Below are positions 9,531-57,779 of a stretch of DNA of 64,000 nt, piece after piece. A program made the translations under genes and the position numbers. Within the stretch, counting starts at the first letter, position 1. Every line of letters begins with the position of its first letter. Source of the stretch: Erythrobasidium yunnanense. Its lineage: Eukaryota; Basidiomycota; Cystobasidiomycetes; Erythrobasidiales; Erythrobasidiaceae. The stretch spans positions 1,909,831 through 1,973,830 of the forward strand of contig BCJC01000001.1 in NCBI GenBank assembly GCA_001600175.1, given 5' to 3'. Below the pieces are notes generated by a model. It was not told where the DNA came from. It did not search any database and saw only the letters and a program-made list of their open reading frames with translations.

Positions 9531-10317
9531 ACAGGCTCTTTCGGACGAGAAGTATTACATGTAACATAAAATGGTCTTTTCAGTCGCGACCAGAGGCATG
9601 GATGCAGCAGTTACAGTGCTTGAAGAGCATCTGGGCGGCTTAGGCTGTTCTCAAGACAAGCGTCAGACGAGCTGATCGTCCTCCTGCTGATGTTCATCGC
9701 AGACTTCCGGCTACAAGTCGACGTAGCTGGCCTCTGGATGCAAAGCGATGGTGTTCTCGCTGCTCTTGAGAGCGATGCTGCGGTGCGGTGACGACCTCGC
9801 CCCCCAGCCCTGCAGGAGTCTCAAGCTCGCACCATACTCGGCAACCGCCTGTCCTCAGATCTTCCAAATGTCTACTTCGGGCTATTTCACAGAACTAGCG
9901 TTTCGCTGGAACCCTCCACTTCCACAAGAGTGGAGATCGAAATACCGTTTTTGCGTTTGACCCGCCAACTCTTCCAACAGATCCTCCGGTCCCAAATATA
10001 AAAGCCTCGGAATGTGTGCTACTCTCTTCTTCTTTCTTTCTCATGAGCTCTACTGATTAGCTCCCTTCTGACCCTTACCTATCTACGACTAACACCCATC
10101 GCTACATTTTAATGTTCCCATTGGACCTTCACAGCATTCTCGCTCGATATTCAGGATGGCTGCAAGGCCAGTCACTGGTACTGAAAAGTTTTCTCAAAGT
10201 CATGCAGCTTCACAAAGTCTGCACTTCCCTTACAAACAGACAAGATGTTGGATGATCAGCGACAAGTGCGCTGCTCTATAAGTCGGGCGTGATCTCTCCA
10301 GGCCTTCAAGGAGAAAG
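9531..10317. other. intergenic region with TATA-like element
   Basis: I see no supported gene in this 787-bp stretch. It contains a TATA-like element at 9997-10004 and pyrimidine-rich tracts just downstream, which suggest a promoter for the gene remnant that follows. A 70-codon plus-strand frame at 9748 has no support. Confidence 0.4.
9997..10004 (+). promoter_or_regulatory. TATA-like element TATAAAAG
   Basis: A perfect TATAAAAG is followed 15-40 bp downstream by a CT-rich initiator-like tract. The next long plus-strand frame begins at 10318, about 310 bp away, so a 5' leader or a leader intron would be needed. Confidence 0.35.
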
Positions 10318-11945
10318 ATGGACCTGGTAGCTGCCAAGCAGAAGCTATCAGTGTTCCAGACTCTTATCCATCGTCAATACTACGATGATGCGTTTCCTGA
10401 CGGTGACAGTGCTTTCCGTCCACCCAATGCAACTCCTCTGGGTGCAATCTATGTTCCGGAGTTCGAACGCATGGATCTAACTGCTGCATCGCCTCCGCGT
10501 CGACCGAAAGGTCAACGGTTCACACCTCCTCACAGAGATGAAGCATATGTGCAACCACGGGTTGCAACGTCGCCTATTTACCGCGGTAACTACTCTCTCT
10601 GTGAACGTCAACCGAAGGGATCCACTTCAGAAGTCAAGGAAGGAGCTTGAAAAATCGTAAGAGAGAGCTTCAAAGAAGAGGAAGACTCCAGTTGTTCTTG
10701 CTCTACCGAAGGAAGTTTGTGAGACCGCAGGCAATGATTACTTGGAGGAACACATGGACAAGTGCATAATCATAGAGCCCGATACAACCGCAATCTGGTC
10801 CAATCCAGCCCAATCTCTCAATGCTCAGATACTCGCTACCGAATCTCACCTCCAAGAACTCAAAGCTCGAAAAGAAAGGGAGGACAGCCTCAGAGAGGAG
10901 GCATTGAGAGATGAGAAGGTCAGACATGAACTAGAGCTGCAACTGAGATCGATGGAACAGCGAGCTTCGGAACAGCTATTGGCGAGTGGGACTTGTGAAT
11001 ATGTACCCTGTCCACAAACACGACGACGCTGGCATCGGATATGACGAGCAAGATAACATCATCGAAATACCAGGAAGTCCTCAAGCGTATCCCACTGTTC
11101 CTCTGGAGACGTCTCTCGAGTCGCCCTCAAGTCGAAGAAGCGAAGATGCAGAAGCCGTTGAGGACGTCTCAGAGGTCACGAGAGACGATTACAGTGGAGA
11201 CGCAGAGAGCTACTATGAAGATACGCAAGCATACTCTCAAGCCTCGTTCCTCAAGGAAGACACACAGCCATTCACCTTTCCTCCGTACCTCGTTGAAGAG
11301 ACCATCCAACTCACCAAGAGCAAAGCCTATCACTTCTCGATAAGAGTACACGATGAAGCTCGCATTCGTTACAGTCAGCATCTCGGTTTAAGTGTAGTTG
11401 CAGCACGTTCGACATCTATCTGGAAGCACAAGCCACTACGGTCGCATCTTTCGTGTACGTCGACGAAGCCCGCAGACGGGTGGCATCCAGTGCAAGCAAA
11501 TTGAACAGCAACCTACGCAACGTTCTTGATACTAGGTACAGTCTTATATGCTGTCCTAATCAAAGCTGACTGGGTTCATCTATAAGTCACTTTCTCGTGT
11601 TCTCAAGATTTCAATCGCAAGGTTCCGTTCATCGAGATCGGACTCCCGCGTCTTGTACCGGCCAAGGAACACGAGTCTGCTTGTACACTTCGAGCAGACA
11701 AGGCGGAGGTCGAAAGGCGCCTCGGAGGGATACGCTTCAAGCTCCGTCCCGAATCTCAACCTACTGCGACTTCTCTCTTCGTCTATCCTCACGCTAAACC
11801 TTCTTATAAGCGCTGGGAACCACACAGTCGCAAGACTCCTTCGGGATTGCCAGAGGAGCTGCCCGACTACGCAAGATCTACCGAAGCAGACGAATCCAAC
11901 CAGCCATGGGAAATTTTGGCAGAAATCCGCCTCAGAAAATGGTAG
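10318..11945 (+). pseudogene. decayed or mis-modelled paralogue of the OTU/GIY-YIG gene
   Basis: Several open blocks follow one another but cannot be joined into one frame with good splice sites. They are an N-terminal block (10318-10580), a coiled-coil block (about 10731-11000) that joins via a 47-nt intron to an acidic block (to about 11345), and a block at 11406-11535. The final exon (about 11586-11945) reads 'FSCSQDFNRKVPFIEIG' and later 'KLRPESQPTATSLFVYP'. This last block matches the C-terminal exon of the gene at 51609-54953 ('FSCSQDVNRKVPFIEIG', 'ALRPAPQPSATAIFVFP'). The acidic block shares 'FTFPPYLVEET' with 'FLFPPFLGEDT' there. The protease-like and GIY-YIG parts are missing. Frame breaks near 11400 and 11540 suggest decay, but unseen splicing is possible. 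Confidence 0.45.
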
Positions 11946-44440: not shown

Positions 44441-45501
44441 TGTGCAGTTCTGTCCTAGTGATTGAGACTTCCCGCTCAAGAGAAGTTGGATCGAAAGAGA
44501 ACTTGGCGGAGAAGGTAGTTTATCGACGAAAGCAACCCGCTCGCTTCTTCCGTAGGCCAGATATCACGGGTAAAGCATATTATCCGCTTGAACATGCGCG
44601 GGATATACCGAAGAGCAGCGCCCTATTCTTAAAAGAGTCAGCTGATGCTGCCAGCTTCCGCCCGGCATCAATACCGACAATTCTACACGCAGGACCAGCT
44701 GTAATGCTTCTGGGCCGTTACTCAACACTCTTACAAGCTAGCTGGGCTTGAAGGCTGGCCATATCTCCCTCTTCTTCGATTTTGCCGTATTCACTGGCGG
44801 CTACACATTCTTGCTTTCAAGCTTGAACAAAAGGCAGCTGACTGCACATAAGCGCAAGATCCATGTCTTCTGCGTCAGGTGCTGCTTCGCTGGTGTCTTG
44901 AATGCTGTCGGTCGATGCAAAAGCAGGAGTCTGTACCCAGCAGAAGACGCATCAAGCAGCGCAGTTTTCGAACAGTACAGGAAGCCAGCCGTTACGCGAA
45001 GCATTGGAAGATTTGTGACGGCATAGCCATGACTCTCCGCAAAACTTTAGCCCGTTCCATTCTCGAGCCCGCTTCTTCGACTAAGGAAAGTCCCGTCAGT
45101 ATTCTTCAGTCTAGCGGAGTCTGCTCTAACGTCTGATAGCCCCATATTGACTCATCCGTCTTTATGGAATTGGCTCATCTCAACGGCTTTCCTTCCTCTC
45201 CGCCTGACCGTTGGCGTCTTCCAAGATGACCAAGAGCGACGAACAGGTCAAGTCACGTCTCTGAGTTCGTCCGACATGTCTTCCTGCTCTGCGAAGCTCC
45301 TGGAAGTCGCTGGAAGACCTCGCCCCCTTCCGCTTCCAAGCTAACGGAATCCCGCCTCGAAAGAGGATAAAATCAATTCATTTCTTCTTGATCCTCTCTT
45401 TCTTCTCTTCCAACTCTTTGCGTCTCGCTCTGCCACTCCTTCAGTCCGCACGCTGATTGAGCTACGAGTCCACTTCTGCCGCTGCTGGGGCCTCTCCAAC
45501 C
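44441..45501. other. divergent intergenic region with CT-rich promoter tract
   Basis: No gene is supported in this 1.06-kb gap. A strong CT-rich tract at about 45378-45420 lies 80-120 bp before the next ATG and looks like a fungal core promoter. Small frames on both strands lack any recognised content. Confidence 0.45.
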
Positions 45502-47686
45502 ATGGCTCAACATGGAGCCTCTCCAGCCACGGCTCAAAAGAAGGTATCTTTCAAGCTCAGAGCTGAAGACGGTGGCTATGTCTCCTACCCAAGTCTAAAG
45601 GCTACCCCCACCGAAGCTCTCGAAGGTAAGTCAGCTTACACTTCGTCACGATCACCTCACAGTCTCCCTGTCTCGACATCTCATCTCGTCCGTGATTTTC
45701 TTTTCGACACCGCTGACCCTCATTGCCATGTTTCGTCCTTGTGCTCACTAGGACACAATCGTTTCCTTGCAAGCATGGAAAGATTCGCCGAGAACGATGG
45801 TGGCCAGAAGCTATACAGATTGAGAACCGAGAATGGTGGACGTCTCTCTTTTGAAGAAGCTGCTGCCATTCCCCAAGAAGCTCTCCGCGGTCAGTGCTCT
45901 TCCCCTCGTCACCTGCCTGATGCCTCGCCTTCTTCGTCACCTTTTTCTCGCACATACCTCTTTGATTATATACTGCTGACGTTTTTTATCACTCTTGTTT
46001 CTCTTAATAACAGGACACTCTCGTTTCCTCGATGTTATGGAGCAATTCGCCGAGATCGATGTTCATGGTCGAAAGCTATACTCACTAAGAACCGAGAACG
46101 GCGGCTGGACAGTGTTTGGTCAAGCCGTTGATATTACCGAGAAAGCTCTTATCGGTGAGTCAGTCTCTCGCCTCCAGTCCCTCACTACTCCACATTACCT
46201 TCACCGCTCCTCCTGTCTCTTGCGTGTCAATGTTTCAGTCGACTGACATACTCCAATGTATACTTTCAGCAAACGCTCGTTTCGAAACATACATGCAGCA
46301 ATTCAGCGAGCCGGTCGAAGCTCAGCCCGGAATGGGTGAACGTTCGAACACTGAGACTCGTTCGTGGCATTCATCACACTGCTTCTACACCTCTGCTGAC
46401 TCTTTATCAGTCACGGATGGCTCACAGGGAGAAGAGAAGAATGCAGGAGAGGGTAAAGTCGTCGAGAAACAAGAAGCTCTGGGCATTGAGCAGGGCGATC
46501 AGAGCGTCAAAGATAGCGATGGAAAGAATGGTGGGTGACTGTCGATATTGTGAAGGCGATTCTTCTGTGTATACTGAACCCTTTCGCAGCATCGATCTCG
46601 CAAGAGCAGGAAGAGAAGAAGCAGGAGGACAGTAGCATAACTCCAAAGGCTCTCGACAGTATGTCAAACCTTCTTCCCTTCATCTTTTTTGTACAAACAC
46701 TGACGCCGATATCTAGCGATGGTCCAACGCCTCGCTCAATATCTGGTAACAGCCTTGCCTGCTGCTCAACCCTCCTCGTCTGCTACCACGACCGCTGCTA
46801 TGGCCGAGACATCCAACACTACTGCTGTCACCACTATCAGCAAGCCTTCCATAAAGCCTATCCTCAAGCAAACGGTCTATGAGCTTCATGATACCGACTC
46901 CGAACCCGAGGCCGAAGACAATGCTCCTACCACTCCTCATCCTACTACTGCCTCTTCTAAGTCTGTCTCGACCTCCCGAAAGCAGAAGCGTGATGAGTCA
47001 GCCTCGGAACTTCCTATTTCCAAGAAGACCAAAACCATAGTCTCGTCTTCCAAGCATTCCAAAGGCAGACCGTCTAAGCGATCGACTGTACACTTCGAGT
47101 CAGAAGACTCTCCCGATGAAGCAGACTTGACCTTCGGCTCCGCCTCCGAGTCTGAGAATCACCCCTCGTCTAGCCCAAATCATACATCGTATTCAAACAT
47201 CCATTCCAAATCATCCACAACATCTGTTCAAGCCTCAACAAGCCAAGCATCTGCAAAGAAGTGGAGCGCTGACGCCATAAAGGACATGCCCTTCCGCCCA
47301 AAAGACCATTACTATGATCAGGAGCTTACTCCGGAGGAAGACAACCGCGGCGTCATCTACGCTGGTCCCTTTTTAAGCGATGTCGCTGTAATGAGACTCA
47401 ATCAATCCCCGAGGCGAGCCTTCATCAAGGCCCTCGGCACTAGCAAGTTAGTTTCATCTAAACGCCTCCAGCAAGAAGAGCAGACTGCAGTGATTGAAGG
47501 CGTTCGTAGCTTCCTACACATCATCAGCGACGAGTACTGACTCTCTTGCTACAGATGAGACAATGGAAAGCGTGGACCGTGGCTTTCGAGGGCGGCTACG
47601 CCGCTAGTCAACGCTCCATTGACGATATCACAAACGACATCACTACAAGATGTGCCACTATTATGGCTCGCTCCTCCAAGAAGTAG
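45502..47686 (+). CDS. protein with duplicated-exon repeats and charged C-terminus, unknown function
   Basis: After 'MAQHGASPATAQKKVSFKL', a unit of about 46 residues recurs in separate exons (45502-45625, 45752-45889, 46014-46154, partial 46270 on). It has the pattern 'LYRLRTENGGRLSF' then 'EALRGHSRFLDVMEQFAE'. All these exons begin and end in phase 1, and their introns (126, 124, 115 nt) are about twice the local norm. Later exons are Glu/Lys-rich, then Ser/Thr-rich with basic patches. A compact segment follows ('MPFRPKDHYYDQELTPEE', 'GVIYAGPFLSDVAVMRLN'). The last exon ends in 'ATIMARSSKK'. Junctions after 46330 and near 47490-47550 are less certain. No family was recognised. Confidence 0.55.
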
Positions 47687-48010
47687 TTGTATCGGACAGG
47701 GAAAGACGGCGAGGTTCGAAGAAGATGGGCTCTCTATGGCAAAGGTGAACTCGGATCTGCAACGTCGGACGCTGACTGAAGCATATCACAAAGAAAGAAT
47801 GGTAGTTACTAGACGGCGCTTTGCTGATGGGCTTCCGATGCGGCGGAAGTGATCATATAGGCGCCGATGTCGAAAGCACCAGGGAAAGCGTACTATTCAA
47901 CATTGTATTTATGTTATCGATACTTCAACAGGTCTAATGCAATACAACTATGATTGCACTATTCGAGCTTTGTACTTCCGGTACATTAGACCCGCTCATG
48001 ACTGGAAATC

Positions 48011-48139
48011 GCTGTTCTACAGCTCTGTCCTACAGCTCTGTCCTACAGTTCTGTCCCACAGTTCTGTCCCACAGCTCTGTCCTACAGCCCTGTACTACAG
48101 CCCTGTCCTACAGCCTTATCCTACAGCCTTGTCCTACAG
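48011..48139 (+). repeat. 13-bp minisatellite, about ten units
   Basis: Units of the form CTCTGTCCTACAG repeat nine times after a first 12-base unit, with point differences between copies (TTCTGTCCCACAG, CCTTATCCTACAG and others). The array is translatable in more than one frame but lies in no supported gene. Confidence 0.9.
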
Positions 48140-48153
48140 AGCTGTAGGACAAG
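48128..48153. repeat. 12-bp perfect inverted repeat closing the minisatellite
   Basis: CTTGTCCTACAG is followed after two bases by CTGTAGGACAAG, its exact reverse complement. The left arm is part of the last array unit, so a reverse-oriented unit caps the array. Confidence 0.85.
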
Positions 48154-48477
48154 TCAATATGCAATAAACATTGGTCTGAGGTACTTCAATCAACATAAGG
48201 AACCATACAAAGTGCCTTTGACTTCTCTAGTAAATACTCTCTCACCCTTACAATCTCTGGAAGAACGCGTGTGCTTGCACAAGTCGGAAAACGCGTCGAT
48301 TATGCTACGAATCAGCGTATTCTGTGCTCTGGAACTGTTTAAGCTGGTCGAAAAGTAGATCTAATACATTTTCCTCGGGAAATCACGTTTCAGGCCAGTC
48401 ATGAGCATTAATTTGCAGGCAGAAGGAAGCCAGAATCAGGTGGATCGTTACTATTGACATTCTAAGAGCTAGGAATT

Positions 48478-49591: not shown

Positions 49592-51608
49592 GATCGCTCT
49601 GAGCTGGTGAGATGTTAGCTTGCGCCGGCGAAGCAAAGTTCAGCGAAGAGTCTGACAGGTCGGGTGACATCCGGACGGTCGAGCCTGATTGTCTGAATGA
49701 CCTGGCATCATGTGTATTTGGGCAAGCGAGCAGGCTCAGTATAAGCAAAAGGGGTGGAACGCTGGCTTGCCAGCCGGATGTCGTGCTTCGAGAGACGATT
49801 GGAAAGTATGGCGAAAGCCTTTGTCCGCGAAGTTCAGGATGGTTCTCAGTATACAGCAGTGCGCGTTGTGAAAGAGAAGCTTGCATTCGAAGTATAGGCG
49901 AGGAGAACCGGCTTGAGAAAATTGGCGCTTTGCCTATATCGCGAACAATCTGGTTCGTTAGGATGGAGTCTTCCAAAGCATATATACGAGTATCTCTTCT
50001 TTGCAGTGCACGTTTGCAGTCTGACTTTGCCTGCTGAATCGTAACACTTGGGAATCGCACTTCGGTATACGACTTAGGCGATTTCACGTGGACGGCTTTT
50101 CTTTGCCAACCAAAACCTACCCAATCAATCCAGCAACTGAGATAGTTGCAGAGGACACAGCCGTGTTCTCCCACACCTTGTGGACCATGTAGATATCTAC
50201 CTTCTTCGCGGTCGGCCCGCTCTGGCTCGACGTACTCTGGAAGATGACAGCATTCGACAAGCACTCATTTCAAACCACAATGCGACTACTGTCGACACTT
50301 ACGATCTTTACACCACTCTCATTACTGGGCTGAACTGTATCTGCTCGCTTGTACAATATTTCCATGCAAACCTAGCTGAACTGCCCTGTCACGAATCTGG
50401 ACAACCATCATACGCCGTGAGTTTCCGAGTGAGCTAGTCTGCTTCTTTTGTGTTGTATGGGTGAAGGATGGGTGTGGCTGCTGGCACGAGAGCCCTTACT
50501 GACGTTTGATTCTGTGTTTGGCCGCAGGGTTCGACATCCTCTCGCCTCAAACATCTTCGTTCAATCCGATGCTCTCCTCTTCTTCCTCTTTCACCATGGT
50601 TCTCATACTCTTCCTACAAGAAAGCCGGACCGCATCAGCATCCTCGACAATCTTCGACTCGCCAAACCTCCCCGAAATCGACCGACTCGACCTCCGACTT
50701 TACCGACAGATGGAATAGCTTTCTTCCTCTGAAGAGGTGAAGATGTATTCCTTTCTCTCTCATTTCCGAAGAAGGTCGCAAACTCGGCATCGACAATCGG
50801 TCTTTTCTCTGCTTCTCGCCTACGAAAGAAGGAAACGATAAGATCCTTTCATACACGTTCTCCCTACGATCTCAAAAGTATCTCTGTCAGCTCGAATGGA
50901 TGAGAAGTACAAATTTCGGGGGTGGGGAATGAAGGGCGAAAAAGACAGGATATCGGCAAGAGGAAGCATCAGATAGCGGGAAGAATGGTTTCGTTGGAAT
51001 GAGCATGAAGGAAGATGCTATACTTCTCTTGCGCAAGACCCTACTTCTTTCGCTTCTCCTTTTCCACCCTTCTATGTCAACTTTATCCTCTTTCTCGAGG
51101 GAATCACCTCCTCTTTGGCCACCTTCGAGATGGAATACTCTCTATAGATATAGGAAGCTATGGGCAAGAGTTCAGGAGCAACGGACGTCGTCTGATGGAA
51201 TCGTCAACGAATGGCTATGTGATTGCTGGATTTCCGGGAAAACGCGTCATTTTATGTTGCTATATGGTGGGTTGTAGGTTTTTGTATGCATTATGCTCGA
51301 AAAGAGCGAAGTTTGCGCGTTCTGAACCGCGATATTTCATGAAATCATAGGCACCGGGTCATGCCCGAAGGGCCAACGGGAGAGATCTCTGCGGCTTGTC
51401 TGTTTTTTGCTCTGCTGGCTCTCCTTGCGACCGACTCTACGTTCATCAACAGCTACTGCGACCATCGACCAGTAGACCTACAGAAAAGCTAGAGAAGACA
51501 GCAGACAAGTGGGAGAATCCGCTCGCATGACGAGCCCGCCCTGCTCGCACTCTGCTTACCAGGAAAACCCTTTCCCTATGCTCCTAGGACTCCCCATCAC
51601 CTCGTAGC
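49592..51608. other. 2-kb stretch without supported genes
   Basis: A 228-codon minus-strand frame (49578-50264) overlaps the 5' side of the preceding gene. Its composition looks random and no splice model fits, so it is not called. Frames at 50448-51350 on the plus strand are likewise unsupported. GA/CT-rich stretches near 51540-51608 may be the promoter of the next gene. Confidence 0.4.
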
Positions 51609-54600
51609 ATGAGGACGTTCACTCCCAAGCCTCGTGCTGGGCTGTGGATCGCTCCTCATGTCTCGCATAAGAAGCGTAGGCACTCGTCCGGTACTTCAAC
51701 CCCTCCTCGTACGCCCTCTCGTCCATCTTCTTCCTCCTCGCTTCCCGTTGGCATCAGTCTTTCGGTCCTCTTCTTTCTCCTTTTCGGTCCTAGTGCAGAA
51801 GCAGCGGTAGCAGCTGATCTTATCCTTACCTCGGTCTGCGTATACTGGGTAAGTCTCCCGTGTCTTGTGATTGCTTAACATTGACACATGGTCTTTACAG
51901 CTCTGCTCGCATACCACACCCTCAGCCTTCTTCCCTCTCCTTGTCCTATACATCGTTCCTGCGGTTTCAGCAGCAGCATCAACCTCTCAAGTCTCGTCAA
52001 AATTCTCTGTAGTAGCAGGAATCGGTGCTGCAGTAGCGGTTCAGAGCACCCTAGGACAGTTCGCTTTTACCAGACAGCCCAAGAGGAAGCTCGGTAATGA
52101 GACAGAAGGTCACGGTCCACCACCATGCAGAGAAGGACATGCGAAGAAGAAATACATCAGGAAAAGAAAGGTGACCCCTGTCGACGAGCAGGATGGCATG
52201 CACGCATTCATTGCACCTCCTCTTGTCGGAACTTCTCTTCACTCGGAAAACTCTCTTTCTTTACTTCAACGTCACTCTCTGTCTTCTTCTCCTCTTTCGA
52301 CTTCAGACTCGCTATCGAACCTACCAGGCTCTCTTGCATACAATGGCAGCCAAGGACTACCGAATGAGGGTACTGAGCTTTCTCAACCGGACAAGCATCC
52401 TGAGAATGATGGTGTAGCTGCTTGGAACGTTGAGCAAGACACGGAATCTTTCCTCTTCCCTCCATTCTTGGGCGAAGATACCCAAGTCCAGGATGCCGCT
52501 GTTGGTGATAGTCCAGTTGCTACCGACTTCCCCTCTCTCTATTATTCCTCCTCCACATCCGCATCCGGAACACCTTCCCTCGGTATCGGAGCAGACGATG
52601 ATGCCCCTTCAGCCAACCTATCCCACGGCAAAATTTCGTCTCTGTCGTCATCGGTAGCAGCAACGGAAGAGGCTTATGTTCTGGCTGGAGACTCCCAGGC
52701 TTTTGCAGAAGACTGGCTCGTTCCAGTGGCTGATGAAGCAGGCCAAGATGGTCTTGAAGGAGGTACGCCTGTGGATACGAAAGTCCTGCACTGTACTCCT
52801 TCCTCCTCATTCGAGTGAGTCTCCTTGTGACTTGGCTCGCGTATCCTCGCTAACCATGTTCAGTCTCGCAAGTATCTTTCAGCAGCCGACTGTTCAACAA
52901 TACTATGACGAAGACTCCGCGTTTACCTTGGCCACGAATACTCCTGAAGGAGGGATCTGTGCATATGCTTCCCTCAGCTATGCCACTCAGGGCGACTTCT
53001 CCCAAACGTTCACCCTCCGCCAACAAATTGCCAACTTCGTACATCTACTCGACTATGAGGACAGGGTAGCTCTTTTGGGGATCTCTCTGGGATATGATAT
53101 ATCCCTAGATGAAGAAGAAGAAGTCAGAATTGGCCTATATGAAGATGTCCTGTCCGCGCTGCCTGGCATCAAATCTGGAGATGGGTATACGGCAGACATC
53201 GATATCTTCGGGTTGGTTTTCGCTGCAAATAGTGAGTAAAGCTACGCGTAGGCAGGCTGTAGCCTTGCTGACTTTGACCTCAGCGCTGGGCAGGCCCATC
53301 CATGTACATCAGGACGACGATGCCGTGCAAGTGATTGGCTATCAGATCGAAACGGAACCTCTGCACATATACTACAGTCCCGCCTATCTCCATTATATGG
53401 GTCTACAACCTGCAGCAATCGTCGAGCACCCTCATTCACCTCTCCTGCCTGCGAGCCTTCAGAACGGTCAACTGGACAAAGGCAAAGGGAAACTCGTCGA
53501 TAATGAACAGCCCGTCTCGGATTTCGATCGCGCTATCCAAGCTCACATCGATCAGGTCATGAGACCTTTGTCTCTGCAGCCTTTCGCCGGCGCAGATGAA
53601 GCTGTCCGCGCCATACTCGCTCTTCCCACCTCACAACTCGCGCAAATGATCAGAGATCGTACACCTGCTGCCAATCGGCGCGTAATGTTAAAGCTGCATC
53701 AACGTTCGGTACCAACCGACGTGGACTTCAAAGATGTGAAGCAAGTAGACAACCTCAAGAATCGGCGACAACCCGGTATCTACTTGCACGATGCTACGCC
53801 CAGTCAGCTCGATGGAGGAAACCAGATGCAAGACCCGGACGAGCGCATCTTCTATGTTGGCAAAGGAGACGGCGCAAACGGGCAGCGCAATATAGCCGGC
53901 ATGGTTAAGAGAGTGGTCCAAAACCATCGCGTGAGCTGAGTCTTCTTCGCCATTGGGTCGCTAATCGCTGATGAATGTGTCTTAGAGCGCGACTCATCGA
54001 CGCAACAGCCCTTCTCTTCACTACACTAGGGTTTATGGCCGGGAAAACATTACACGCGTAGTACCTTCTCCTCTGCCAGACACTCCGCATCGTGACATAT
54101 ACTGGGCTCTAATCTTGTACCAGGCAGAGGAGCTGGCCGGTCTGTCGCAATTCCTGGAATGCTTCAGTATCACATTTTGCAACCTCTGCATATCTCAAAC
54201 GTATCTCAAGTGGCTTTCATCCATTGGCGGTACCACTTCCTCTTTGCCTTTCAAAGGCACCAATGTAGCGACCGGCTTGGAGCCCGATACTGAGAAGTCA
54301 TTCACTTCTGAGGTGCAACGTGAGCGAGGCCTCAAATCCGGCATTGCTGAGCGCACAAGCGAATTGAAGAGACTTCACCCGGAAAGATCATTGGAAGAGC
54401 GAGGTCGAGGTGGACTAGCGGCTGCTGTCAGCAAGCTAGCTAGGAACAAGCAGAAGGTTCTTGGGAACCCTTTCCACGTAAGTCTGGCCTTCTCCCGAAC
54501 CTGGTATACCCACCTGATTTGGCACTACAGGTTAGCTTCAGTTGCAGTCAAGATGTTAATCGCAAAGTCCCCTTCATTGAGATCGGTTTTGGACGCCTGC

Positions 54601-54953
54601 TTCCTGCAAAGGTGTTCAAGACGACATGCAAACCCCGACCAAGCAAGGCAGTCATGGAGCAACGACTTGGAGTTACATTCGCCCTCAGACCTGCCCCACA
54701 ACCCTCGGCGACAGCGATCTTCGTGTTTCCTCAAGGCAATCCCTCACCCACTCACTGGCAGCTGCACATCACGATCACAATGCCAGACTCTTCCGTCGGT
54801 CTCGCTCCTCTCGTCCTACAGCCTAATGATAGTAAACTCTGGACTCGCACACAGTGGCAGAACGTCGGAAGGTTCATAGAAAAGGCTATGGAGCTACAAG
54901 AGGAGGGTGAACGTGACGAAGACGAAAGTTCAGACCAAGATGGATCGGAATAA
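51609..54953 (+). CDS. multidomain protein: OTU-like cysteine-protease fold and GIY-YIG-like domain
   Basis: Six exons with clean introns (51849-51900, 52815-52863, 53232-53283, 53931-53985, 54478-54530) encode 1,027 residues. The N-terminus is basic and then hydrophobic (residues about 47-110, possibly 2-3 membrane segments), followed by disordered Ser-rich sequence. At about 400-545 an OTU-like pattern appears: 'EGGICAYASLSYATQGDF' and 'FTLRQQIANFV' around Cys417, 'IDIFGLVFAANTLGRPIHV', and 'LHIYYSPAYLHY' with His544. The usual Asp before the Cys motif is Glu. At about 670-760 a GIY-YIG-like pattern follows: 'QPGIYLHD', 'RIFYVGKGDG', then 'LHYTRVYG'. A novel C-terminal block ('FSCSQDVNRKVPFIEIG') is shared with the remnant at 10318-11945. 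No transposase was seen. Confidence 0.6.
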
Positions 54954-56882: not shown

Positions 56883-57779
56883 TGGAGGTAGTTAGATGGG
56901 TGCCTACATGGATGGTTCTTTCGAAACATTAGCCCTTTTGCGAGACTCTGTCTGCTCTGCTATCCATTCCTTCTCTGTCTTCCTAGGGCTGTCCTGGCCG
57001 CTTCAAGGCTGTCGTGTCGATTGCTACTCACAGCTTATAAGACCCGTGCTCATTCGCGTTCTGCGGCGCATAGTAGGAGTGCCTTCCGACATGTTCCTAC
57101 AGATCCCTGCTCGAGCGCGCAACGGTCCCGCCTCAGCATCACCTCTGCTCCCAAACCTTCCTTCCCACCGAAACAAATCTCGTGAACTCGAAGCTAGCTC
57201 AAGATGACGAGCTCCGCCCACTGTCAGTATGCCCGGCTAATTGTTGACCAGCCGCCTTTTCCCTCGGCATCACATGTGCTACCACTACACTCAACTACGG
57301 CCGCCGCACCCTAAACATCTACGCGATCACTCTGCCTACACACTACTGCTCAGGCAGCCTCAGCCAGGTAAGCCAACCCAGCCCATCATCATCGACCGGC
57401 CGTTTCGGGAGTACGCGAACGAAATCAGCGGAGCGCACCAGAGTCAGCGTCTATCCTCTAGAAGCGGGAAATGGCGGGAGTCCTCGAAGTCAGCCGATCA
57501 GCGGGTCCGGCGAAGCTGTCACCTTCTCTTCTTGGAGACAAGGTCGAAGGAAGAGCTACTTGCTGCTTCGCTGCATATGGCTGTTCAGGAGAGCCTGTAC
57601 TGCCTCTCTTCTGGCGTCAGACCGCTGCTTTCCCTAGTCGCGGGGTACCTACCTGCTCTGCTCCATCTTCGCGCGCCCTCGCTACCTTACGTAGCTATTT
57701 ACTGACTATAAACTCATCAGTTCGTTCTTTTCTTCTCTCTTTCCTTTCTACCACAACACCCAAACCTCTTAAAAACAGT
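56883..57779. other. region upstream of the Argonaute relic
   Basis: Overlapping frames of 100-155 codons occur on the plus strand, but none shows recognisable content. Some may be 5' exons of the Argonaute relic. Confidence 0.35.

What the first reader, a model, noticed from the sequence alone, without database searches (positions are those of the whole stretch)
51609..54953. OTU-like protease fold fused to a GIY-YIG-like domain in one fungal protein
The sequence directly shows a six-exon gene whose 1,027-residue product contains an OTU-style Cys/His pattern (EGGIC...LHY) and, downstream, a GIY...YVGKG pattern with a following HY. OTU enzymes cleave ubiquitin-like modifiers, while GIY-YIG domains cut DNA. 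A fusion with hydrophobic N-terminal segments and a novel C-terminal block is not one I recognise. OTU and GIY-YIG domains both occur separately in mobile elements, so a domesticated or lineage-specific element protein is an option.
Basis: partly seen in the sequence, partly recalled or inferred. Interest (0 to 1): 0.78.

Follow-up and report, generated by a model that had tools for sequence, protein, structure and literature searches.

The report
Orphan fungal gene, unproven enzyme motifs
This is a real six-exon gene, one of three related genes that share different pieces and found nowhere else we could search; its supposed ubiquitin-cutting and DNA-cutting domains rest on short motifs that no curated profile confirmed.

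Summary
The gene model holds: six exons, five 49-55 nt GT-AG introns, 1,027 residues as stated. Both ends are supported by paralogues on the same contig: the N-terminal module and intron 1 by a gene 63 kb downstream, the C-terminal block by a region 40 kb upstream, so that block is not unique. Three protein-database searches and scans of viral and prokaryote contigs found no relative.

The domain claims are not established. Pfam, NCBIfam, PHROGs and PDB sequences give no OTU or GIY-YIG match. A small OTU profile gives 7.4 bits, reached by 2 of 5,000 shuffles, but an unrelated antisense ORF gets 6.6. GIY...FYVGKG is unique among the window's ORFs, and FYVGKG is the core of LEM-3-like GIY-YIG proteins; but with that hexapeptide masked the score is at chance, and the catalytic His is absent where expected. 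Nothing indicates a mobile element.

Best reading: a fast-evolving, lineage-specific mosaic gene family; one member may hold a divergent OTU-like domain and a GIY-YIG-like segment that is probably not an active nuclease.

The parts
51609..51848 (+). exon 1 (aa 1-80): MRTFTPKPRAGLW start, basic stretch, hydrophobic segment (aa 40-85, runs into exon 2)
   Evidence: 44% identical to G000:C1:2024774-2025022 over aa 1-86; first 22 codons 8.5 synonymous vs 4.5 non-synonymous differences
51849..51900 (+). intron 1, phase 0, between W80 and L81; same W|L position in paralogue C
51901..52814 (+). exon 2 (aa 81-385): hydrophobic windows aa 85-112 and 109-136, then long Ser-rich and acidic stretch
52864..53231 (+). 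exon 3 (aa 385-508): first half of the OTU-like region, Cys417 at 52958-52960
52922..53405 (+). OTU-like region, aa about 405-548, across intron 3 (Cys417 ... LRQQ 436 ... GRPIHV 510 ... His544-Tyr545)
   Evidence: own 8-sequence OTU profile 7.4 bits, reached by 2 of 5,000 shuffles; no Pfam, NCBIfam or PDB match
53284..53930 (+). exon 4 (aa 508-723): His544 at 53391-53393, linker, GIY at 53775-53783, FYVGKG at 53850-53867
53763..54192 (+). GIY-YIG-like segment, aa about 668-792, across intron 4
   Evidence: own LEM-3-like profile 14.1 bits for aa 656-800, top of 934 sequences scored, but at chance with FYVGKG masked
53986..54477 (+). exon 5 (aa 724-887): Glu771/772 at 54127-54132, Asn789 at 54181-54183, then basic region
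54531..54953 (+). exon 6 (aa 888-1027 and stop): C-terminal block, conserved part aa 888-966 (54531-54767), acidic tail
   Evidence: pS 0.82 and pN 0.27 over 79 codons against paralogue A
11586..11825 (+). paralogue A: second copy of the C-terminal block, 56% identical, starting within a base of a possible splice acceptor
10282..11945 (+). gene region of paralogue A; also holds the KCIIIEPDTTAIWSNP segment shared with paralogue C; no OTU or GIY-YIG match above noise; exon structure not resolved

Best explanation
The finding is a genuine protein-coding gene (B) of a lineage-specific, fast-evolving family of three related loci on one contig, all on the + strand within about 107 kb. Each pair of loci shares a different module: A and B the C-terminal block, B and C the N-terminal hydrophobic module with its intron, A and C an 'IWxNP' segment. 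The middle of B (exons 3-5) has no other copy found in the genome. Most likely mechanism (inferred, not shown): the hydrophobic N-terminus anchors the protein in a membrane of the secretory pathway; the long Ser-rich stretch is a flexible tether; the OTU-like region is a divergent papain-like cysteine-protease fold with a Cys417/His544 dyad that acts on ubiquitin or a ubiquitin-like tail; the GIY-YIG-like segment is either a decayed, non-cutting GIY-YIG fold or a chance motif. Shown: gene structure, paralogy, purifying selection on both ends, no second copy of the middle. Inferred: membrane anchoring, both folds, any activity. I put the lineage-specific mosaic family at about 0.8, a true OTU fold at about 0.45, a true GIY-YIG-derived fold at about 0.4, and the whole mechanism at about 0.2.
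For: Gene model without stops, consistent short introns. Paralogue C with the same start peptide and the same W|L intron. Paralogue A with the same C-terminal block. A and C share IWxNP at E 1.4e-5 and 2.3e-5. Synonymous changes exceed non-synonymous per site at both ends (the 22 N-terminal codons are the best-conserved ones). No homologue in three protein-database searches, viral contigs, prokaryote contigs. OTU profile: 2 of 5,000 shuffles. GIY profile: the exon-4 ORF is the best natural ORF scored, 12.8 bits against 6.7 for the best unrelated one, and 1 of 400 full shuffles reaches the model-global score. Cys to His is 127 residues, with an aromatic residue after His, a feature described for most deubiquitinase families (PMC7391069, passages).
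Against: No curated profile or PDB sequence recognises either domain. The OTU score is hardly above an unrelated antisense ORF (7.4 for the trimmed segment, 6.4 for the exon-3 ORF, against 6.6), and a model-global alignment is reached by 17 of 400 full shuffles. The GIY-YIG score is carried by one hexapeptide: 854 of 1,547 reported masked shuffles score as high. Most LEM-3-like proteins compared have 10-13 residues between the tyrosines, not 24 (39 of 43). The Asp of DGxC is Gly414, and His is missing at Tyr698+12. Two AlphaFold2 jobs on single exons gave unusable models, mean pLDDT 37.8 and 49.7. Tethering is read from hydropathy alone. The protein database may hold few fungal proteins, so absence of relatives is weak evidence.
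Confidence: 0.45

Rival explanations
1. Both motif sets are chance: the protein is an orphan with no relation to OTU or GIY-YIG families, and the reader picked out patterns from a large set of possible ones.
For: No OTU or GIY-YIG hit in Pfam, NCBIfam, PHROGs or PDB sequences; OTU score comparable to an antisense ORF; GIY score at chance once FYVGKG is masked, and 77 of 2,000 shuffles that keep FYVGKG score as high, 59 of 400 in the model-global test; the shuffle tests are not corrected for the choice of this protein and these families.
Against: Two independent motif sets each fall in a plausible order; the exon-4 ORF beats the best unrelated ORF by about 6 bits; in sliding windows along the protein the best OTU and GIY scores lie at the claimed places.
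Confidence: 0.35
2. A true fusion of an active OTU-type deubiquitinase with an active LEM-3-like GIY-YIG nuclease on one membrane-anchored protein.
For: Cys417/His544-Tyr545; GIY with FYVGKG, and Arg709, Glu771/772 and Asn789 as candidates for the other positions; FYVGKG is the core of proteins that Pfam assigns to LEM-3_GIY-YIG (5 of 5 tested).
Against: PF22945, PF01541 and PF02338 do not find the locus; the catalytic His of GIY-YIG enzymes is not at +12 (N710) or at R709+4 (G713); DGxC Asp absent.
Confidence: 0.1
3. Protein of a mobile element or its domesticated remnant.
For: In polintons the protein-primed polymerase carries an OTU-like domain and also diverse inserted homing-endonuclease domains, and Tlr1-like helicases of polinton-like viruses carry GIY-YIG or HNH domains (PMC11071308 and PMC12721341, passages only).
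Against: No second copy of the OTU or GIY part; spliceosomal introns; around the gene only short, weak two- or three-copy repeats, such as 51408-51432 with 57654-57678 (25 nt, 72%); no polymerase, integrase or transposase family among 20 window ORFs scanned.
Confidence: 0.04
4. Two neighbouring genes wrongly joined: an N-terminal gene like paralogue C and a C-terminal gene like paralogue A.
For: The two ends are homologous to two different genes; paralogue C ends in the ORF that begins after its first intron.
Against: The frame stays open across all five introns; exons 2 to 6 prefer this frame.
Confidence: 0.08

Closest known systems
OTU cysteine proteases (Pfam PF02338; OTUD3, OTUD5, YOD1, Otu2 in the PDB)
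   Same: Cys box followed by an LR-containing helix, a later GxxIxV stretch, and His followed by an aromatic residue, in OTU order
   Different: no significant profile match; DGxC Asp replaced by Gly; the genome's three recognised OTU loci are not found with this region as query
LEM-3/ANKLE1-like GIY-YIG domain (Pfam PF22945)
   Same: GIY, FYVGKG, a later Glu pair and Asn; the long Tyr-Tyr spacing (24) is seen in a few relatives (22-29 in 3 of 43; 33 in ANKLE1 from Y453 and Y486, PMC10287932 passages)
   Different: no profile match; 39 of 43 compared proteins have the shorter spacing of 10-13; the His these enzymes use is absent at +12; score rests on the hexapeptide
Polinton protein-primed polymerase with OTU-like domain (PMC11071308, passages)
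   Same: a known case of an OTU-like domain and inserted homing-endonuclease domains in one protein
   Different: viral or element polymerase; no polymerase domain here
Paralogue C, G000:C1:2024774-2026320 (locus L030)
   Same: N-terminal module, 44% identity over aa 1-86, identical first 13 residues, same W|L intron
   Different: continues into a basic, IWxNP-bearing part; no OTU, GIY-YIG or C-terminal block in the readable stretch
Paralogue A, window 10282-11945
   Same: C-terminal block, 56% identity
   Different: no OTU or GIY-YIG match above noise; carries the IWxNP segment; exon structure unresolved

Membership tests
OTU cysteine protease | significant match to an OTU profile | tested here: not met
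   own profile 7.4 bits, E 0.27 among 934 sequences
OTU cysteine protease | catalytic Cys and downstream His, aromatic residue after His | tested here: met
   Cys417, His544, Tyr545; aromatic rule from PMC7391069 passages; that a spacing of 127 is normal for OTUs is recalled
OTU cysteine protease | Asp three residues before Cys (DGxC; recalled, and seen in the genome's own OTUs) | tested here: not met
   Gly414 with Glu413 before it; own OTUs read DGNC, DGSC, DNSC
OTU cysteine protease | OTU fold | tested here: inconclusive
   only exon 3 was folded, mean pLDDT 49.7
OTU cysteine protease | ubiquitin isopeptidase activity | not testable with these tools
   needs purified protein
GIY-YIG nuclease (PF01541, LEM-3-like PF22945) | significant profile match | tested here: not met
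GIY-YIG nuclease (PF01541, LEM-3-like PF22945) | GIY and YIG-type tyrosines | tested here: met
   Tyr674 and Tyr698
GIY-YIG nuclease (PF01541, LEM-3-like PF22945) | His about 12 residues after the second Tyr (H498 after Y486 in ANKLE1) | tested here: not met
   Asn710 at +12; Gly713 at Arg709+4; nearest later His are 722 and 727. All 43 comparison proteins have it, but the scan pattern demanded it
GIY-YIG nuclease (PF01541, LEM-3-like PF22945) | metal-binding Glu and Asn | tested here: inconclusive
   Glu771/772 at +73/74 and Asn789 are candidates; in ANKLE1 Glu551 is +65 from Y486 (PMC10287932 passages)
GIY-YIG nuclease (PF01541, LEM-3-like PF22945) | Lys of the active site (K519 in ANKLE1) | not tested
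   no reliable alignment of that part
Mobile element protein | several copies, terminal repeats or element genes nearby | tested here: not met
Three-locus mosaic family on C1 | shares a homologous module with each other member | tested here: met
   A-B 1.1e-23, B-C 1.1e-8, A-C 1.4e-5 and 2.3e-5

The most novel reading that the evidence does not exclude
A membrane-anchored protein that carries both a divergent OTU-type protease and a LEM-3-like GIY-YIG nuclease, assembled in a young mosaic gene family of one fungal lineage: a single cellular protein that could remove ubiquitin-like modifiers and cut branched DNA at a membrane.
Probability: 0.1. Interest if true: 0.72.

Novelty: new member of a known kind. 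Interest (0 to 1): 0.32.

Why it matters
What is shown is an orphan gene family whose three loci share modules pairwise, a useful case of how lineage-specific genes are assembled. If the OTU and GIY-YIG folds were confirmed, it would be a cellular protease-nuclease fusion of which the listings of four literature searches showed none, although polinton polymerases already combine an OTU-like domain with inserted homing-endonuclease domains (PMC11071308, passages). If not, it shows how short catalytic motifs in unaligned orphan proteins can mislead.

Tried and rejected
Direct similarity of the GIY part to phages and plasmids: 10 phage records (nine of them mycobacteriophages with one shared match, of which I opened one) and 2 plasmid records at E 0.4-7. 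The matches lie in the frame of a DNA methyltransferase gene and in an isomerase-like ORF, and antisense to a P-type ATPase and to a UvrD-like helicase, so I take them as chance ('isomerase-like' and 'UvrD-like' are my recall). OTU part: no phage match; 13 plasmid records at E 2-5, not followed. SegF of phage T4 and an own OTU as baits in viral contigs found nothing. Weak local matches between B and paralogue A (QYYDD...DSAF, 1 of 100 shuffles; FPPYL, 0 of 100; IW motif of exon 6, 3 of 100) are not in the same order in the two genes and are left unresolved. Two further N-terminal hits, on C3 and C6 (E 0.008 and 0.06), were fetched; tblastn against the four fetched stretches gave isolated matches at E 3e-4 and 2e-4 there, not followed. 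Hits on C4 (E 0.87) and C7 (23 residues, E 0.001) were not followed. AlphaFold2 of exon 6 and exon 3 was unusable, so no fold search was run. A chain search for paralogue A's exons gave only a partial model.

The GIY profile was seeded by a pattern containing FYVGKG. The OTU profile has eight sequences, three of them from this genome and some of them fragments. The Tyr-Tyr spacing was read by a simple pattern, and one of 43 gave no value. Besides this genome no fungal genome could be searched.

Full report
The observation. The stated coordinates hold a complete gene model: ATG at 51609, stop ending at 54953, five GT-AG introns of 49-55 nt, and a product of 1,027 residues. The frame stays open through all six exons. 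In-frame codon preference is the best of six frames in exons 2-6 and second best in exon 1, by small margins. The window lies at C1:1909831-1973830 of a 20.9 Mb assembly in 10 contigs for which no relatives are held.

Two outside checks support the ends of the gene. A gene 63 kb downstream (locus L030, C1:2024774 onward) begins with the same 13 residues, is 44% identical over residues 1-86 (E 1.1e-8), and has its first intron at the same W|L position. In the first 22 codons, the best-conserved part, there are 8.5 synonymous and 4.5 non-synonymous differences over 16.5 and 49.5 sites. The C-terminal block of exon 6 recurs at window 11586-11825 with 56% identity (E 1.2e-21 in the window; 1.1e-23 in the genome), with pS 0.82 and pN 0.27 over 79 codons; there too it starts within a base of a possible splice acceptor. 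The upstream region and the downstream gene share a third module, KxIxIxPxxTxIWxNP, at E 1.4e-5 and 2.3e-5. So three loci on one contig share modules pairwise. The genome searches scored only the best candidates, so more distant copies may exist.

Distribution. Three searches of the protein database gave no relative: 7,991 candidates scored for residues 380-1027 with none at E up to 1, 7,999 for the OTU-GIY part with none at E up to 10, and 103 for the two-sequence C-terminal block with none at E up to 10. Viral contigs (5 and 32 pattern matches) and prokaryote contigs (54 pattern matches) gave no confirmed relative. With E up to 10, the OTU part and the GIY part find only themselves in this genome. 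How many fungal proteins the database holds is not known to me.

The OTU claim. Pfam with a limit of E 10 lists no OTU family for the whole protein or two trimmed versions, NCBIfam none, PDB sequences none, and the genome-wide PF02338 search finds three other loci but not this one. I built an OTU profile from eight cellular sequences: three from this genome, the rest fragments printed. Scored without filters, residues 386-560 reach 7.4 bits; of 5,000 full shuffles (4,102 reported) and 5,000 with GGICAY fixed (4,058 reported), 2 each score as high. The alignment places the Cys box and the LRQQIANF helix in register and, at negative score, GRPIHVHQ. Against this, a model-global alignment is reached by 17 of 400 full and 18 of 400 core-fixed shuffles. 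Among 934 sequences scored (931 ORFs of at least 60 aa from the window and 11 fetched loci of this genome, and three forms of the protein), an unrelated antisense ORF reaches 6.6 bits, more than the exon-3 ORF at 6.4; the spliced full protein gets 3.6. Cys417 and His544 are 127 residues apart, and Tyr545 follows the His, the aromatic rule described for deubiquitinases (PMC7391069, passages only). The Asp of DGxC is missing.

The GIY-YIG claim. Pfam, PHROGs and NCBIfam give no such family; PF01541 finds one other locus and PF22945 none. GIY followed by Y[VI]G occurs in 12 of 20,000 shuffles of the protein, YVGKG in 7, and GIY followed by YVGKG in none. All 80 listed encode the motif in an open frame, and 5 of 5 tested match LEM-3_GIY-YIG above its cut-off. 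Of the 80, two were dropped as too short and 35 as redundant; a profile from the other 43 scores residues 656-800 at 14.1 bits, and the exon-4 ORF is the best natural ORF scored, 12.8 against 6.7 bits for the next unrelated one. No full shuffle of 2,000 (1,616 reported) reaches 14.1 bits. But the score is local to the hexapeptide: with it masked the segment scores -1.6, and 854 of 1,547 reported masked shuffles do as well; with it kept and the rest shuffled, 77 of 2,000 do as well. In the model-global test 1 of 400 full and 59 of 400 core-fixed shuffles do as well. The His that ANKLE1 uses twelve residues after the second Tyr (H498 after Y486; PMC10287932, passages only) is Asn710 here. If this is a GIY-YIG fold, it has probably lost nuclease activity.

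Mobile element? Not supported. No second copy of the middle was found, the gene has spliceosomal introns, the repeats around it are short and weak, and of 20 window ORFs scanned 11 match ordinary families, among them BUD22, Rsm22, WD40, an ABC ATPase, a DOT1 domain, an aldehyde dehydrogenase and an RTA1-like protein, none an element family.

Mechanism. What is shown is the gene, its paralogues and the selection on its ends. What is inferred is a membrane-anchored protein with a flexible Ser-rich tether and a divergent papain-like, OTU-type Cys/His site that would act on ubiquitin-like modifiers, followed by a degenerate GIY-YIG-like segment. I give that mechanism about 0.2.

Literature. Four searches for GIY-YIG together with OTU domain, ovarian tumor, deubiquitinase, OTU-like or cysteine protease matched 112, 108, 2 and 119 papers and listed 20, 20, 2 and 15. 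No listed title or abstract start describes a fungal fusion of the two. Passages of PMC11071308 and PMC12721341 were read; PMC3482391 and PMC7712723, which hold both kinds of term, were not opened. In polintons the protein-primed polymerase carries an OTU-like domain and also diverse inserted homing-endonuclease domains, a partial precedent. Most subscription papers are not in the library.

Verdict. Partly confirmed observation, partly supported interpretation, modest interest: a real orphan mosaic gene family with unproven domain identities.

Noticed in passing
window 47986-48167: A minisatellite of 13-nt units (CTGTCCTACAGCT-like, about ten registers) with an inverted copy at its end, between ORF 46704-47540 and the DOT1-like ORF.
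   Followed up: no
window 45457-46131: An ORF with an internal duplication 262-265 nt apart; no Pfam match at E up to 0.01.
   Followed up: no
window 10282-11945: Paralogue A has several frames and no clean exon chain under the intron rules tried; it may be a decaying copy or have unusual introns.
   Followed up: partly
L030 (G000:C1:2023500-2032500): About 5 kb of masked sequence lies close downstream of paralogue C; left alone.
   Followed up: no
L007, L008, L009; L010: By Pfam the genome has three recognised OTU loci and one GIY-YIG locus (possibly SLX1, my recall); none came up with the finding's regions as queries.
   Followed up: partly
   Followed up: partly
G000:C7:458195-458263 (-): A 23-residue match (74% identity, E 0.001) to the N-terminal part of paralogue A.
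   Followed up: no
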